Assembly: GCA_947625305.1 (NCBI GenBank)
Contig: CANQNW010000003.1
Span: 1 to 64,000, forward strand
DNA from: Candidatus Gastranaerophilales bacterium
Lineage (GTDB): Bacteria; Cyanobacteriota; Vampirovibrionia; Gastranaerophilales; Gastranaerophilaceae
DNA length: 64,000 nt
Reading direction: 5' to 3'
Shown here: piece by piece, positions 4,346 through 28,684 of the stretch
Layout: the number at the start of each line of letters is the position of its first letter
Position numbering within the stretch: position 1 is the first letter of the stretch
Translations under genes and position numbers: made by a program
Notes under the pieces: generated by a model
Databases searched by the model: none
Told to the model about the DNA's origin: nothing
The model's input: the letters and a program-made list of their open reading frames with translations, nothing else

Positions 4346-5449
4346 ATGAATAATTTATGGGAAAAATATGCTAAAGTATTGGTTGATTATTCCGTAAAAG
4401 TTCAAAAAGGTGAACTTACCATAATAAGAACGGATTCTTACCAATCTCAGCCCTTAGTTAAAGAAATATATAAGCAGGTGCTTTTAAAAGGCGGATATCC
4501 TGTTGTAAGAATGGGTGTGGAAGGCTTAAACGAAGTATTTATAAAAAATGCAACTGATGAACAGCTTGAGTATATTGACCCTATGACCGAGCTTGAATAT
4601 GATAAAGCCAAAAATTTAATATCAATAGGTGCTCCGTTAAATGTAAAAAATATGGCAAGATGTGATTCTAAAAAACTTGCAAAACGGTCAGGTATAATGA
4701 AACATTTATCTGAAAAAATGCTAAAAAGATCAGCAGAAGGCGATTTAAAGTGGGTTATAGCGGATTTCCCTACACATGCACTTGCTCAGGAGGCTAAAAT
4801 GTCACTTGAGGAATACACTGAATTTTTAATAAAATCCTGCTGGCTTCATCTTGATGACCCCGTTAAAAAATGGCAGGAAATAGGCGAAACGCAAGAAAAG
4901 ATTGCAAATTACTTAAATACTAAATCAAAAATCCATATAACGGGCGAAAAAACAGATATTACTTTTAATGTATCGGGCAGAATTTGGAAAAGCTGTGCGG
5001 GAGAATGTAATTTCCCCGATGGTGAAGTTTATACATCACCTGTTGAAGACAGTGCGGAAGGGCAGATTTATTTTGATTTTCCTCAAATCTATCACGGAAA
5101 CGAGGCTCAAAAAGTTCTATTAACTCTTAAAAACGGTAAAGTTATTGATGCAAAAGCCGAAAAAGGCGAAGATTATTTAAATAACATGCTTGATATGGAT
5201 GAAGGTTCAAGATTTGTCGGCGAAATCGCAATCGGTACAAATGAAATGATACAGGATGTAACGGGAAACATTTTGTTTGATGAAAAAATCGGCGGTTCAA
5301 TTCATATGGCAGTCGGTGCATCATACCCTGATACGGGCGGTAAAAATGTATCGGGTCTACATTGGGACTTAATTAAAAATATGAAAAACGGCGGAAAAAT
5401 CTTTGCAGATGATGTCCTTATTTATGAAAACGGAAAATTTCTTATATAA
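4346..5449 (+). CDS. M29-family metallo-aminopeptidase
   Basis: This is a cytoplasmic dinuclear-metal aminopeptidase of the thermophilic M29 (AmpS/PepS/AmpT) family, releasing N-terminal residues from peptides. The C-terminal half carries the diagnostic run of metal-ligand motifs: DGEVYTSP, GEIAIGTN, IGGSIHMAVG, SYPDTGGKN and LHWDLI. The 367-residue length is slightly shorter than the usual ~410. It starts 2 bases after lpxA and is probably co-transcribed with the lpx operon, although its role is unrelated. Its stop lies 2 bases from the convergent XRE gene. Confidence 0.9.
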   Translation: MNNLWEKYAKVLVDYSVKVQKGELTIIRTDSYQSQPLVKEIYKQVLLKGGYPVVRMGVEGLNEVFIKNATDEQLEYIDPMTELEYDKAKNLISIGAPLNVKNMARCDSKKLAKRSGIMKHLSEKMLKRSAEGDLKWVIADFPTHALAQEAKMSLEEYTEFLIKSCWLHLDDPVKKWQEIGETQEKIANYLNTKSKIHITGEKTDITFNVSGRIWKSCAGECNFPDGEVYTSPVEDSAEGQIYFDFPQIYHGNEAQKVLLTLKNGKVIDAKAEKGEDYLNNMLDMDEGSRFVGEIAIGTNEMIQDVTGNILFDEKIGGSIHMAVGASYPDTGGKNVSGLHWDLIKNMKNGGKIFADDVLIYENGKFLI

Positions 5450-5451
5450 AA

Positions 5452-5727
5452 TTATTTATTTATAATAAAGAAATCTTTACCCAGTTCATTTTCAACTTGT
5501 TTGATTAATTCAGATAACGGAGTATTTAATGCTTCGGATATTCTCCACATCATTGTAAGTTTAGGTTCTATTTTCCCGTTTTCAATTCTGCATAAATTTC
5601 CGGAATCAAGGTCATACTCATAAGAAAATAAGGTTTGAGATTTACCCGTTTTTCTTTCTCTTTCTTGTTTTATTATTTCTCCAAAAGCTTTAATAAGTTT
5701 TTCGGTTCTTTGATTTTTATATTGCAT
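5452..5727 (-). CDS. XRE-family transcriptional regulator
   Basis: A 91-residue protein almost entirely made of a Cro/CI-type helix-turn-helix (about residues 8-75); the recognition region contains LDSGNLCRIENGKIEPKL, a typical XRE pattern. It is divergent from the ATP-grasp gene at 5796. The shared intergenic region carries two nearly identical 11-base sites 40 bp apart, one in the spacer of the divergent promoter. The obvious inference is that this protein represses the ATP-grasp/peptide genes and possibly itself. It has no ligand-binding or peptidase domain. Confidence 0.85.
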   Translation of the reverse strand: MQYKNQRTEKLIKAFGEIIKQERERKTGKSQTLFSYEYDLDSGNLCRIENGKIEPKLTMMWRISEALNTPLSELIKQVENELGKDFFIINK

Positions 5728-5779
5728 ATATACAGTATATTTGCTATAATAAAATTAAATATTGTATGTATACAGCATA
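5722..5779 (+). promoter_or_regulatory. Promoter of the ATP-grasp gene with two putative XRE operators
   Basis: TTGCAT (5722-5727), a 17-base spacer and TATAAT (5745-5750, with an extended TGC upstream) form a strong promoter towards 5796. The spacer holds a perfect 13-base palindrome, ATATACAGTATAT (5728-5740). Its core TATACAGTATA (5729-5739) recurs as TATACAGCATA at 5769-5779, exactly 40 bp (about four helical turns) downstream and just past the expected transcription start. Paired half-turn-phased sites around a promoter are a classic repressor layout. Binding by the adjacent XRE protein is inferred. Confidence 0.6.
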
Positions 5780-5795
5780 AAGAGTATTATTTTTT

Positions 5796-6704
5796 ATGTG
5801 GAAGTTTTTTAAAGGAAAAGATGAAGAAATACCTGATCCGCCATATGAGTATGAGGATTTATTAAATTTACCCGAAAGGGAGTATCCTAAATATTTAAAA
5901 AAAATATTTAAAAATAAGACCGGAAAAGAATTAAATTTAAAACATCCTAAAACATTTAATGAAAAAATACAGTGGATAAAATTATATGATAAGAATTTGA
6001 AAAAAAAGGGAGAATTAACAGATAAAATTAAAGTCCGAGAATTTGTTATGTGGAAGATAGGTGAAAATTATCTAAAACCTATGCTTTTCACATGTAAAAG
6101 TTTTGATGAAATTCCGTTTTTCTTTTTACCTAATTCTTTTATAATAAAAGCTAATAACGGGTGTAAATGGCAGTATAAAATAAAAGATAAAAATAAATTT
6201 TTATCGGAAGAAAAGTTATATTTGTATGTAAGAAACAAATTTAATAACTGGATGAAACAGCGATTTTGTTATTGGGCCGGATTTGAGATGCAATATAAAT
6301 ATATAGAACCTCAAATAATAATTGAACCTGTTTTAATAGATGATGATAGAGATTATGCCATAGAATATGAAATTTACTGTTTTAACGGTGTTCCGAAAAT
6401 ATATCAGCGAGTGGAGTATGACATTCCTGTTCATTGTTGTGTATATGAAAAAAATTATGAAGAAAGCAAGATTACTTTTAATCCTGCTTATGTAAAGTAC
6501 TATATGGAACCTGAACAGACTTTAATTGAAGCGGTTGAACTATCTAAAATTTTAAGTAAGGATTTTAATTTAGTTAGAGTGGATTGGCTGTTATACAACA
6601 ATAATATATATTTTAATGAAATGACATTTACTCCGTTTTCGGGTTTTTATCAATTTGCGGATGAAAAAATGAATTATCGTCTTGGAAAAATGTTAAAAAT
6701 ATAG
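5796..6704 (+). CDS. TupA-like ATP-grasp family protein
   Basis: The 302-residue sequence matches the TupA-like ATP-grasp family: KTFNEKIQWIKLYD near 54-66, an FIIKANNGCKW strand, YIEPQIIIEPVL, YEIYCFNGVPK, and the C-terminal metal-binding run VRVDWLLYNNNIYFNEMTF. ATP-grasp enzymes join a carboxylate to an amine or thiol via an acyl phosphate. TupA is tied to teichuronopeptide synthesis, and many homologues sit in surface glycan clusters. Here the neighbours are an XRE regulator and, 12 bases downstream, a 52-codon gene, not glycan genes. That raises the possibility that the small peptide is its substrate; this is inference. No signal peptide or membrane segment is present. Confidence 0.85.
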   Translation: MWKFFKGKDEEIPDPPYEYEDLLNLPEREYPKYLKKIFKNKTGKELNLKHPKTFNEKIQWIKLYDKNLKKKGELTDKIKVREFVMWKIGENYLKPMLFTCKSFDEIPFFFLPNSFIIKANNGCKWQYKIKDKNKFLSEEKLYLYVRNKFNNWMKQRFCYWAGFEMQYKYIEPQIIIEPVLIDDDRDYAIEYEIYCFNGVPKIYQRVEYDIPVHCCVYEKNYEESKITFNPAYVKYYMEPEQTLIEAVELSKILSKDFNLVRVDWLLYNNNIYFNEMTFTPFSGFYQFADEKMNYRLGKMLKI

Positions 6705-6716
6705 AAAGGAAATGAT

Positions 6717-6875
6717 ATGGAAGATTTAAATAATATGACGGATGAACAAATAATGGATATTTATTCTGATATTATTGAAAGCGGATTGAAACTTGCCGCT
6801 TTTAAAGGAGGCGGCAGCCATACTTGTTATCAAGGCTATTCGAATGATCCTAATGCTAATTGCAGGCAGGATTAA
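6717..6875 (+). CDS. Small 52-residue protein, possible substrate of the ATP-grasp enzyme
   Basis: This short ORF starts 12 bases after the ATP-grasp stop and has a well-placed ribosome binding site (AAAGGA, 6705-6710, six bases before ATG). The product has an acidic, helix-prone N-terminal half (MTDEQIMDIYSDIIES), then LKLAAFKGGG, then a polar tail with two cysteines (SHTCYQGYSNDPNANCRQD). An acidic leader, a glycine run and a short polar core resemble a ribosomally made peptide precursor, but I recognise no known precursor family. It ends overlapping the convergent regulator by 4 bases. Expression from the upstream promoter is likely; the function is unknown. Confidence 0.65.
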   Translation: MEDLNNMTDEQIMDIYSDIIESGLKLAAFKGGGSHTCYQGYSNDPNANCRQD

Positions 6876-7510
6876 ATATTTTTTAATACTTTTACAACAA
6901 CTTGGGTTCTGTCTTCGACCCCGAGTTTTTGTATTATACTGCTGACGTGGACTTTTACGGTATTAATGCTTACATCTAAAATTTTTGATATTTCATTGTT
7001 ATTTAAGCCTTCACAGATGTATTCCAATACTTCTTTTTCTCTGTCGGTGAGATTATATTCTTTATCAAAATTATCAGTATAGGATTTTTTATCTTTTGCG
7101 ACTGCATTTAACACGACATTAGAAATTTTAGGGTCAAACCACGCAGCCCCTTCTATAACAGATAAAACCGTATCTGCAAGTTTTTCGGGATTTATATCCT
7201 TTGAACAGTATGCGCTAGCCCCTGCTTTTATTGATTCTATAACTTCTTCTTCGCTGTTATGAGAGGTTAATATTATTATTTTTATTTTATTATTTATTTT
7301 TTTAATTTCTTGAGTTGCTTCAATACCGTTCATATTAGGCAGGCCTAAATCCATAATAACGGCATCAATTTTATGTTTTTTGCAAAGTTCGATTGCATCC
7401 TCGGCATTTGAGGCTTCATAAATTTCTTTTATAAACTCCTTTGATTCAAAAGCTGTCTTAAGCCCGAATCTTATTAAAGTGTGATCTTCAACAATAAGTA
7501 TATTATACAT
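6872..7510 (-). CDS. NarL/LuxR-family response regulator
   Basis: A 212-residue DNA-binding response regulator. The receiver domain (1-120) has the acidic pocket (VEDH), phospho-acceptor Asp54 in MDLGLPNMNG, the switch Thr82 (LTSH) and Lys104. The LuxR-type helix-turn-helix (about 147-208) begins LTDREKEVLEYI and includes SINTVKVHVSSIIQKL. It starts 3 bases after the HD-GYP gene, so the two are co-transcribed. No histidine kinase lies in the window, so the phosphodonor is elsewhere or the upstream GAF/HD-GYP protein is a signalling partner. Confidence 0.93.
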   Translation of the reverse strand: MYNILIVEDHTLIRFGLKTAFESKEFIKEIYEASNAEDAIELCKKHKIDAVIMDLGLPNMNGIEATQEIKKINNKIKIIILTSHNSEEEVIESIKAGASAYCSKDINPEKLADTVLSVIEGAAWFDPKISNVVLNAVAKDKKSYTDNFDKEYNLTDREKEVLEYICEGLNNNEISKILDVSINTVKVHVSSIIQKLGVEDRTQVVVKVLKNI

Positions 7511-27185: not shown

Positions 27186-28684
27186 TTAAACTTTTATTAA
27201 ATACCAAAACATATATTTGTCTTTACCGGTGGTATATTCATAATTCTTTTTATTTATGATATTTTCAATTATTTTTTTTATAGAGTCCTCATCTAAAATA
27301 TTCAGTTCATCATTGTTTAAATTTTTGCATAAAATTAATAAATTTTTGTTTTGGTTATTTTCAAAAGTTTTATTAATTAAATCTTCCATAGTTTTTTGAA
27401 AATCCGAATTGATAAAATATAAGTCAACTTCAAATGTTTTATTATATTTTAATAACTTATTATAAAATTCCATATATACCCTTAATTCTTCCGTTGTAAT
27501 AATTTTGGTGTTATTCGGTATTTGGGATAACAAAGTACTTATAGAATTAGTCATTACTGTTCTGTATTTTTCGTTTACTCTTCTGTTAAGATAATTTTCA
27601 GGATAGGTTATATAAGGTAAATATTTTAAATTCAATATTAAGAATATTATTACTGATAATATAATCGTTTTAATATAAAAAAACCTTGAATCATCTAACG
27701 GGGTAACAATTAATAAAATAAATATTGGTATTGTAAATAATATTAATCTCTCATGAAACGGATAAAATTTAAGGAAAGATGCTACAAGTAGAAAAAATAT
27801 TATTAAAGCTATTAATATTGCGTATTTTCTGTTATTTTTAAATAAAATTATAAATCCAAAAACCAGAAATAAAATAACCGGAATAAAATAATTATCATTA
27901 AATGAATAAATACAAAAATGAAAAAAATTTAATATTATTTTATAAAAAGAACTGAATGATAAATTTAAAAATCCGTTTTTCCATTCCAATGCTTCAATTT
28001 CCGCCGAGTAAATATTGCTATATAGAAAAAATAAATAAATATTTGCCAGAATATAACTAGAAAAAACAATTAGAATTTTTTTTGTAATATATTTTTCCTC
28101 AATAGTTTTTGCAATAATCACTGCAGGTATTATAAATATGGCAGAAAATGAGAAAATCGGAAGTATAAATGCCGAAATTGAATATATAATCAAGTTTTTC
28201 GTGTTTATATTTTTAAAATGCAAATAATCATATATAAATATCAAAAATAAACATACCAAAACATCAGTTGAATAAGGTTTATATTCTTGTGAATAATAAA
28301 TTAAAACAGGGCAGACAGAGAAAATTAATAGTCCCATTAACACTGGGATTTTTGTTTTAAATAATTTAAGAGAAATAATAGAGAATAAAAAAATGGACAT
28401 AATGGAAGACATAAAGGGAAGAAGACGAAAACTATAACAGCTGTATCCAAAGATTTTTAATATAATAAATGTAATTACACAAAATAAAGGAGGACATTTT
28501 TGATAATTTTCTAAAGGAGAAAATAAATCTGCTATATCGGTTTTAAATAAAGATTGACCTAACAACATTTCATCAAGCCAAAAAGGCATACCTTTCAGAT
28601 AATATAATTCTCTGAATATTACCCCCCCCCACATACAATTAATACGGCAAAACACCAAAAAATGAGTTTAAATTTATTTTTCAT
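27186..28684 (-). CDS. GT39-like membrane glycosyltransferase, out of phase at a poly-G tract
   Basis: A GT-C fold enzyme with about 10 transmembrane helices and the first-loop motif GMPFWLDEMLLGQSL. The natural start appears to be the ATG at 28684, giving MKNKFKLIFWCFAVLIVC as the first helix. With nine Gs at 28630-28622 that frame meets TAA directly after the tract; seven or ten Gs would join it to VIFRELYYLKG and give about 498-499 residues. As drawn, the frame opens only from a TTG at 28658 in another phase (490 residues), which destroys the first helix. This looks like a phase-variable gene in the OFF state, or a homopolymer sequencing error. Confidence 0.7.
28622..28630 (-). repeat. Poly-G tract (9 G on the coding strand)
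   Basis: Nine consecutive Cs on the plus strand in a sequence otherwise near 30% GC. The tract sits 19 codons into the glycosyltransferase gene, the classic place for slipped-strand phase variation; the frame is closed at 9 and open at 7 or 10. Confidence 0.85.

What the first reader, a model, noticed from the sequence alone, without database searches (positions are those of the whole stretch)
5452..6875. XRE regulator, TupA-like ATP-grasp enzyme and a 52-residue peptide gene form a compact unit
Seen: an ATP-grasp gene is followed after 12 bases by a small ORF with an excellent ribosome binding site. Its product has an acidic helical N-terminus, a Gly-Gly-Gly boundary and a two-cysteine polar tail. 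A divergent XRE gene and paired operator-like sites control the unit. Known: ATP-grasp enzymes modify ribosomal peptides in several RiPP classes, and TupA-like members build peptide-sugar polymers. Inference: the small protein may be the substrate of a TupA-type peptide modification system not tied to a glycan cluster.
Basis: partly seen in the sequence, partly recalled or inferred. Interest (0 to 1): 0.72.

Follow-up and report, generated by a model that had tools for sequence, protein, structure and literature searches.

The report
Hypervariable cysteine peptides with TupA-like ligase
A small gene beside a TupA-like ATP-grasp enzyme belongs to a previously undescribed family of gut-bacterial peptides that share one conserved 'handle' but have wildly different cysteine-rich tails, probably modified by that enzyme, with up to about 50 copies per genome.

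Summary
In detail: XRE (5452-5727, -), a PF14305 TupA-like ATP-grasp gene (5796-6704) and, 12 nt later, a 52-codon gene (6717-6875) form a 1.4-kb unit. The host is a Candidatus Gastranaerophilales relative. The unit is absent from the same site in three congeners.

The peptide belongs to a large family. Its host genome has 8 members; 20 of 41 congeneric genomes have it (53 and 40 copies in two); no credible hit exists elsewhere in the family or order. The ~22-residue acidic N-terminus (E-I-x-x-L-Y-x-D-I-I-E) is conserved (35% mean identity); tails are not (8-9%). Of about 52 TupA genes examined, 48 are followed by such a peptide, usually within 30 nt. Peptide-linked TupAs separate from glycan-cluster TupAs in a tree. 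Two cassettes in one genome share 824 identical nt ending exactly after DIIE; beyond that the tails are unrelated. Tails are Cys-rich with even Cys counts (70 of 80), pointing to disulfides. Some relatives carry poly-C tracts (phase variation), radical-SAM or U32-like genes.

Best reading: a leader-guided, RiPP-like system with a TupA-type ligase and exchangeable tails. The chemistry is untested. It is not a graspetide by the features tested.

The parts
5452..5727 (-). XRE-family regulator (91 aa), divergent from the operon
   Evidence: HTH_3 PF01381 E 6.3e-7; 21 of 43 peptide-linked TupA genes with room upstream have a divergent XRE, against 2 of 17 other TupAs
5719..5739 (+). operator-like repeat copy 1 (ATATTGCATATATACAGTATA)
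   Evidence: 21-nt direct repeat, 86% identical to copy 2, spacing 40; function inferred
5745..5750 (+). TATAAT, possible -10 box for the TupA-peptide operon
   Evidence: sequence match only
5759..5779 (+). operator-like repeat copy 2 (ATATTGTATGTATACAGCATA)
5796..6704 (+). TupA-like ATP-grasp ligase (302 aa)
   Evidence: PF14305 E 7.3e-26; residues invariant in 15 homologues include K118, E177, R261, E275, T277; confident model pLDDT 88.8, ATP-grasp fold by Foldseek
6717..6875 (+). precursor-like 52-aa peptide; conserved leader about aa 1-21 (MEDLNNMTDEQIMDIYSDIIE), variable two-Cys tail to aa 52
   Evidence: leader-HMM hit E 3.9e-10 in own genome; 7 other leader copies in own genome, 20 of 41 congeners positive
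5440..6888 (.). approximate extent of the block present here and absent from the same site in G027, G030 and G004
   Evidence: M29 and RR genes lie about 10-25 nt apart in the three congeners

Best explanation
The unit is one copy of a RiPP-like cassette family. SHOWN: a divergent XRE gene flanks a two-gene operon of a TupA-like ATP-grasp enzyme and a precursor-like peptide; the peptide has a conserved acidic leader and a hypervariable, Cys-paired tail; cassettes are gained or lost as blocks, and in one pair the boundary between shared and unshared sequence lies at the leader/tail junction. INFERRED: the leader helix binds the TupA enzyme, which uses ATP to activate a carboxylate on the peptide (or on a partner) and forms an amide or ester bond, tolerating almost any tail. 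The leader is later removed and the tail is exported and forms disulfides. In other copies a radical-SAM or U32-like enzyme may add a second modification. The XRE protein probably represses the operon from the two repeats at the promoter. The mature products probably act outside the cell as a changeable arsenal or signal.
For: Physical coupling: about 48 of 52 distinct TupA genes examined carry the peptide directly downstream, 43 of 50 gaps between -20 and +30 nt. Specialised enzyme: 14 TupAs without a peptide, most of them out-of-genus copies beside glycosyltransferases, form one clade with 100/100 support apart from all peptide-linked ones. Leader conserved, tail not: mean pairwise identity 0.347 against 0.089 and 0.079. 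Promiscuity: TupAs 96% identical in one genome (L052/L054) have identical leaders and unrelated tails, with 756 nt upstream plus 68 nt of leader perfectly identical and then a sharp end at codon 23. Purifying selection on leader codons: pN/pS 0.17/1.20, 0.14/0.62, 0.07/0.26 in three pairs. Even Cys counts in 70 of 80 tails; 45 even to 8 odd after clustering, p 1e-7; control proteins 47% even. Precedent: the TupA-like domain of C. jejuni Cj1438 forms amide bonds on a carboxylate (PMC11800379). Intact conserved residues and ATP-grasp fold.
Against: No biochemical evidence that TupA acts on the peptide. No exporter or leader peptidase was found: the genome has no C39 peptidase and no GG motif is conserved. 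Disulfides alone would explain the Cys pattern without enzymatic modification. Some peptides stand without an adjacent TupA (own C2 and C14 copies; orphan copies in G027 with TupA in trans). TupA similarity correlates slightly better with tail similarity than with leader similarity across loci. For the window peptide itself no same-site orthologue exists, so its own dN/dS could not be measured. In two of nine pairs the leader pN/pS was near 1 (L059/L060, L053/L195).
Confidence: 0.62

Rival explanations
1. The tails are small secreted disulfide-rich proteins, and TupA does not alter their structure but conjugates them (through a carboxylate or amine) to a cell-surface glycan or another carrier.
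For: Characterised or presumed TupA-like enzymes act in glycan clusters: Cj1438C amidates glucuronate, and out-of-genus TupAs here sit beside glycosyltransferases. Even Cys counts fit disulfide-bonded tails.
Against: The peptide-linked TupAs are a separate group from the glycan ones, and the window unit has no adjacent glycan genes. A leader conserved far more than the tail fits enzyme docking better.
Confidence: 0.2
2. The peptide is an autonomous secreted effector or bacteriocin-like protein whose leader is an export signal; TupA is a passenger or immunity gene.
For: Several peptides occur without an adjacent TupA; G007 precursors hold two or three leader-like repeats with a single TupA in the genome.
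Against: Tight TupA-peptide adjacency in 48 of about 52 genes, and genomes with leader hits also have TupA.
Confidence: 0.1
3. The unit is a toxin-antitoxin or phage-defence module with XRE as antitoxin or control protein.
For: XRE partner; gained or lost as a compact block; one relative (L067) lies between phage head, adaptor and terminase genes.
Against: No PADLOC hit for TupA or peptide; only generic HTH/control-protein hits for XRE. The hypervariable Cys-paired tails do not fit an intracellular toxin. Half of the loci have no XRE.
Confidence: 0.05
4. The 52-codon ORF is a chance ORF.
For: It is short and has no Pfam or PHROG match and no NCBIfam match above cut-off.
Against: Leader family with eight copies in the genome and 20 of 41 congeners; ribosome-binding site; purifying pN/pS in related copies.
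Confidence: 0.01

Closest known systems
Prochlorosins (Nif11-leader lanthipeptides; one promiscuous ProcM, many precursors; PMC10783134)
   Same: Conserved leader, hypervariable Cys-containing core, many precursors scattered in one genome, some in trans to a single enzyme.
   Different: No Nif11 or GG leader match and no C39 peptidase in the genome; the enzyme here is a TupA-like ATP-grasp, usually one per peptide; even Cys counts suggest disulfides rather than lanthionines.
Graspetides / microviridins (ATP-grasp ligases of the MvdC/D kind; PMC8939145)
   Same: ATP-grasp enzyme next to a leader-core precursor; some Bacteroides loci also pair closely similar ATP-grasps with unrelated precursors and carry SPASM radical-SAM genes.
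   Different: PF14305 enzyme, with no graspetide-ligase model among its hits; leader motif Phhx(1,2)h in 0 of 81; no shared Ser/Thr-Asp/Glu/Lys pattern in the tails.
TupA-like amidoligases of glycan pathways (C. jejuni Cj1438C, PMC11800379; teichuronopeptide TupA, from memory)
   Same: Same domain name and family, so the same ATP-dependent bond-forming chemistry is expected.
   Different: Here the gene is paired with a peptide rather than glycosyltransferases, and the enzymes form a separate group.
Pheganomycin peptide ligase PGM1 (cited in PMC8939145)
   Same: An ATP-grasp that joins a ribosomal core peptide to another amino acid.
   Different: Different ATP-grasp family and cluster (from memory); not compared directly here.

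Membership tests
PF14305 TupA-like ATP-grasp | Profile match above the curated cut-off | tested here: met
   91.6 bits against cut-off 25 over residues 56-300
PF14305 TupA-like ATP-grasp | ATP-grasp fold and conserved catalytic-type residues | tested here: met
   pLDDT 88.8; best Foldseek hits are D-Ala-D-Ala ligases and LysX/ArgX at E about 1e-6 to 1e-5, TM mostly 0.35-0.47; K118, E177, R261, E275 invariant
RiPP (general) | Precursor with conserved leader and variable core, clustered with a putative modifying enzyme | tested here: met
RiPP (general) | Post-translational modification of the core shown | not testable with these tools
   needs mass spectrometry
RiPP (general) | Leader peptidase or exporter | tested here: inconclusive
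   no C39 peptidase in the genome; U32-like proteins in some related loci; other exporters not searched
Graspetide | ATP-grasp ligase of the graspetide families | tested here: not met
   no graspetide-ligase model among NCBIfam or Pfam hits of the enzyme
Graspetide | Leader motif Phhx(1,2)h (present in about half of graspetides) | tested here: not met
   0 of 81 leaders; motif definition
Graspetide | Conserved Ser/Thr and Asp/Glu or Lys crosslink residues in the core | tested here: not met
   tails share 8-9% identity, Glu and Lys depleted, 5 tails have no Asp/Glu
Nif11 / prochlorosin lanthipeptide | Nif11 leader with double-Gly motif | tested here: not met
   no Pfam or NCBIfam Nif11 match for the window peptide; small doublet right after the leader in only 19 of 81
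Nif11 / prochlorosin lanthipeptide | LanM-type synthetase | not tested
   none noticed next to the loci read; genome not searched for it

The most novel reading that the evidence does not exclude
A new class of ribosomal peptide natural products: a TupA-type ATP-grasp amidoligase guided by a short acidic leader (ExIxxLYxDIIE) modifies disulfide-rich tails of practically unlimited sequence. The tails are swapped by recombination exactly at the leader end and in part switched by poly-C slippage, giving gut Gastranaerophilales a diversified, changeable set of secreted peptides (up to about 50 per genome).
Probability: 0.45. Interest if true: 0.86.

Novelty: new variant of a known kind. Interest (0 to 1): 0.74.

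Why it matters
No paper in the open library links a TupA-like ATP-grasp to a ribosomal peptide (0 papers; the only 'TupA-like' plus 'ATP-grasp' paper concerns a capsule). If true, it adds an enzyme class to RiPP chemistry that tolerates very different tails. It also reveals a large hypervariable peptide repertoire in a gut lineage with little known biology, and a natural example of modular leader/tail exchange that can be tested directly.

Tried and rejected
GGG as cleavage boundary: present only in this peptide and one paralogue of the own genome; conservation ends at DIIE. C39/double-glycine export: no C39 peptidase in the genome. Spread by viruses in general: IMG/VR hits are distant TupAs at 21-37% identity; only one prophage-borne relative found (L067). 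Presence outside the genus: leader hits elsewhere have E above 1e-3 and sit in ORFs of about 300-950 aa; TupA homologues there are 32-44% identical and mostly sit with glycosyltransferases. Hypermutation of adenines (DGR-like) between two near-identical G009 peptides: differences are not A-directed. Defensin-like fold of the long G009 tails: model pLDDT 55, Foldseek without significant hit, Cys motif not enriched over shuffles. An early tail clustering by global alignment merged nearly everything and was replaced by BLAST clustering. The TTGCAT/TATAAT promoter guess is not among the consensus-scan hits.

Full report
WHAT IS THERE. The window lies in a 1.97-Mb genome of 26 contigs. Named relatives are Candidatus Gastranaerophilales MAGs (Lapin series, presumably rabbit gut) and a goat-caecum bacterium. 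Downstream of lpxD-lpxC-fabZ-lpxA (names by reading) and an M29 aminopeptidase gene stand a divergent XRE gene (5452-5727, -), a TupA-like ATP-grasp gene (5796-6704, +; PF14305 E 7e-26) and, 12 nt further, a 52-codon ORF with a good ribosome-binding site (6717-6875, +), then a convergent LuxR-type response regulator. Two 21-nt direct repeats (5719-5739, 5759-5779) flank a TATAAT box in the intergenic region.

THE PEPTIDE IS ONE OF A LARGE FAMILY. A search of the own genome with the 52-aa sequence found three paralogues, and a leader profile found eight copies in all. All share an acidic leader of the form L-[ST]-x-E-[EQ]-I-x-x-L-Y-x-D-I-I-E, followed by unrelated tails. Around them are XRE genes, TupA genes and in some copies radical-SAM genes with or without a SPASM domain. 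The own genome has seven TupA genes, five of them with a peptide downstream or within about 2 kb.

DISTRIBUTION. In the genus (41 genomes), TupA homologues are in 34 and the leader in 20; two genomes (G009, G010) have over 60 TupA matches and 53 and 40 leader hits. In 191 family and 286 order genomes the leader was found only in this genus; the remaining hits have E above 1e-3 and lie in ORFs of about 300-950 aa, taken as chance. I fetched 56 TupA reading frames with neighbourhoods, some of them fragments of one gene, so about 52 genes. A leader peptide follows 51 frames and one more was found by eye (L064): about 48 of 52 genes. Of 50 gaps measured, 43 lie between -20 and +30 nt. These loci were chosen by TupA similarity to the window, so the fraction does not apply to all TupAs.

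ENZYME. In a maximum-likelihood tree 14 TupAs without a peptide, mostly of glycan type, form one clade (100/100) and no peptide-linked TupA falls in it. The label 'no peptide' needs 5 changes against 15.8 in shuffles. Three other no-peptide rows (L013, L015, L188) lie among the peptide-linked ones; L013 has a peptide 1.7 kb away and L188's genome has orphan peptides. Outside the genus, TupA genes mostly sit beside glycosyltransferases. The window enzyme is predicted with confidence (pLDDT 88.8) as an ATP-grasp fold, nearest to D-Ala-D-Ala ligases and LysX/ArgX, with TM only about 0.35-0.47. No solved structure matches by sequence. The one biochemically described TupA-like domain found in the library, Cj1438C of Campylobacter jejuni, couples a glucuronate carboxylate to serinol-phosphate or ethanolamine-phosphate (PMC11800379), so ATP-dependent amide formation is the expected chemistry.

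LEADER AGAINST TAIL. Over 81 peptides, mean pairwise identity is 0.347 in the last 19 leader residues, 0.089 in the first 20 tail residues and 0.079 in the last 20. In two cassettes of one genome (L052, L054) the TupAs are 96% identical, and 756 nt before the peptide start plus 68 nt of leader are identical without a mismatch. Similarity then stops after codon 23, at DIIE. This is direct evidence of recombination or gene conversion bounded by the leader/tail junction, and of one enzyme type with unrelated tails. Leader codons show purifying selection in most pairs, near 1 in two of nine. TupA similarity correlates with both leader and tail similarity across loci (0.28 and 0.40), so enzyme and tail are not wholly independent.

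TAIL COMPOSITION. Tails are enriched in Cys (6.1x), Trp (2.4x), Tyr (2.1x) and Gly (1.7x) and depleted in Lys, Leu and Ile. The Cys count is even in 70 of 80 tails that have Cys; after BLAST clustering 45 clusters are even and 8 odd (p 1e-7); control proteins are 47% even. In one search, with 76 tails, six is the commonest number (26). This points to disulfide pairs and hence export; zinc sites would favour multiples of four. Several of the odd ones belong to a sub-group with leader S-I-D-E-I-N-x-L-F-x-D-I-I-E-x-P and SPASM radical-SAM genes (inference).

MOBILITY AND SWITCHING. In the congener G027 (response regulator 99%, M29 98.6% identical) and in G030 and G004, the M29 and regulator genes are about 10-25 nt apart: the whole window block is missing. 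No target-site duplication was seen. With three empty sites, gain in this lineage is the simpler reading. In G006 two TupA genes and their peptides lie between phage major-head, head-tail-adaptor and terminase genes. Poly-C tracts of 8-11 nt occur right behind the leader codons of both C8 peptides, leaving the tails out of frame, and near TupA starts or peptide starts in many relatives. Such tracts are common in the whole genome, and the window unit has none.

REGULATION. A divergent XRE gene stands before 21 of 43 peptide-linked TupA genes with room upstream, against 2 of 17 others. The XREs fall into different subtypes, and their intergenic repeats differ accordingly (by eye), so each unit seems to be controlled separately.

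VERDICT. Observation confirmed; interpretation supported in its core. It works like a RiPP system with hypervariable cores. By the features tested it is neither a graspetide nor a Nif11/prochlorosin system. The modification itself, the leader protease, the exporter and the biological role are unknown.

Noticed in passing
L016:4500-4890 (own genome C8:25500-25890): Two tandem leader peptides carry poly-C tracts of 11 and 9 nt directly after the DIIE codons; the tails in the other frame resemble each other (..GLGCGGPK / ..VSCGGGK), which suggests phase-variable tails.
   Followed up: partly
window 28622-28630 and whole own genome: Poly-C/G tracts of 8 or more are frequent (166 overlapping 8-mers in 1.97 Mb, 31% G+C in the window); the one in the window lies at the 5' end of a 490-aa hydrophobic ORF (27186-28658, -). 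Phase variation in Gastranaerophilales: no paper found.
   Followed up: partly
G009, G010 (L070-L088): Over 60 TupA-like ATP-grasp matches and 40-53 leader peptides in single genomes of 2.3-2.5 Mb, with long tails (roughly 60-140 aa) that form several sequence families, some with internal repeats (L074, L130).
   Followed up: partly
L190-L194 (G007): Precursors of about 214-252 aa with two or three leader-like repeats before one Cys-containing tail ending in CK; the genome has a single TupA hit.
   Followed up: no
L066:6227-7351, L077:2479-3624, L062:2678-3832, L017:1681-2685: A protein of about 380 aa with weak peptidase U32 similarity (PF01136, E 6e-6 to 1.5e-4; the last one without a Pfam hit) follows the peptide in many loci; possible second modification or leader-processing enzyme.
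   Followed up: partly
L067 (G006:C50:114000-125000): Two TupA genes and their leader peptides lie between phage major head, head-tail adaptor and terminase genes.
   Followed up: partly
L182, L184, L186 (G027): Orphan leader peptides at different sites share a conserved upstream stretch of about 160 nt with a poly-C tract; part of the same stretch lies downstream of the TupA gene at the end of L188.
   Followed up: no
L118, L116, L120: Tails with CxxxC..CxC spacing and a low-confidence beta-alpha-beta-beta model reminiscent of a defensin-like fold; not significant.
   Followed up: partly
L224:2374-2589 and L225:1178-1420 (other genera): Short Gly/Asp-rich ORFs (71 and 80 aa) with ribosome-binding sites lie upstream of glycan-type TupA genes; unrelated to the DIIE leader.
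   Followed up: no
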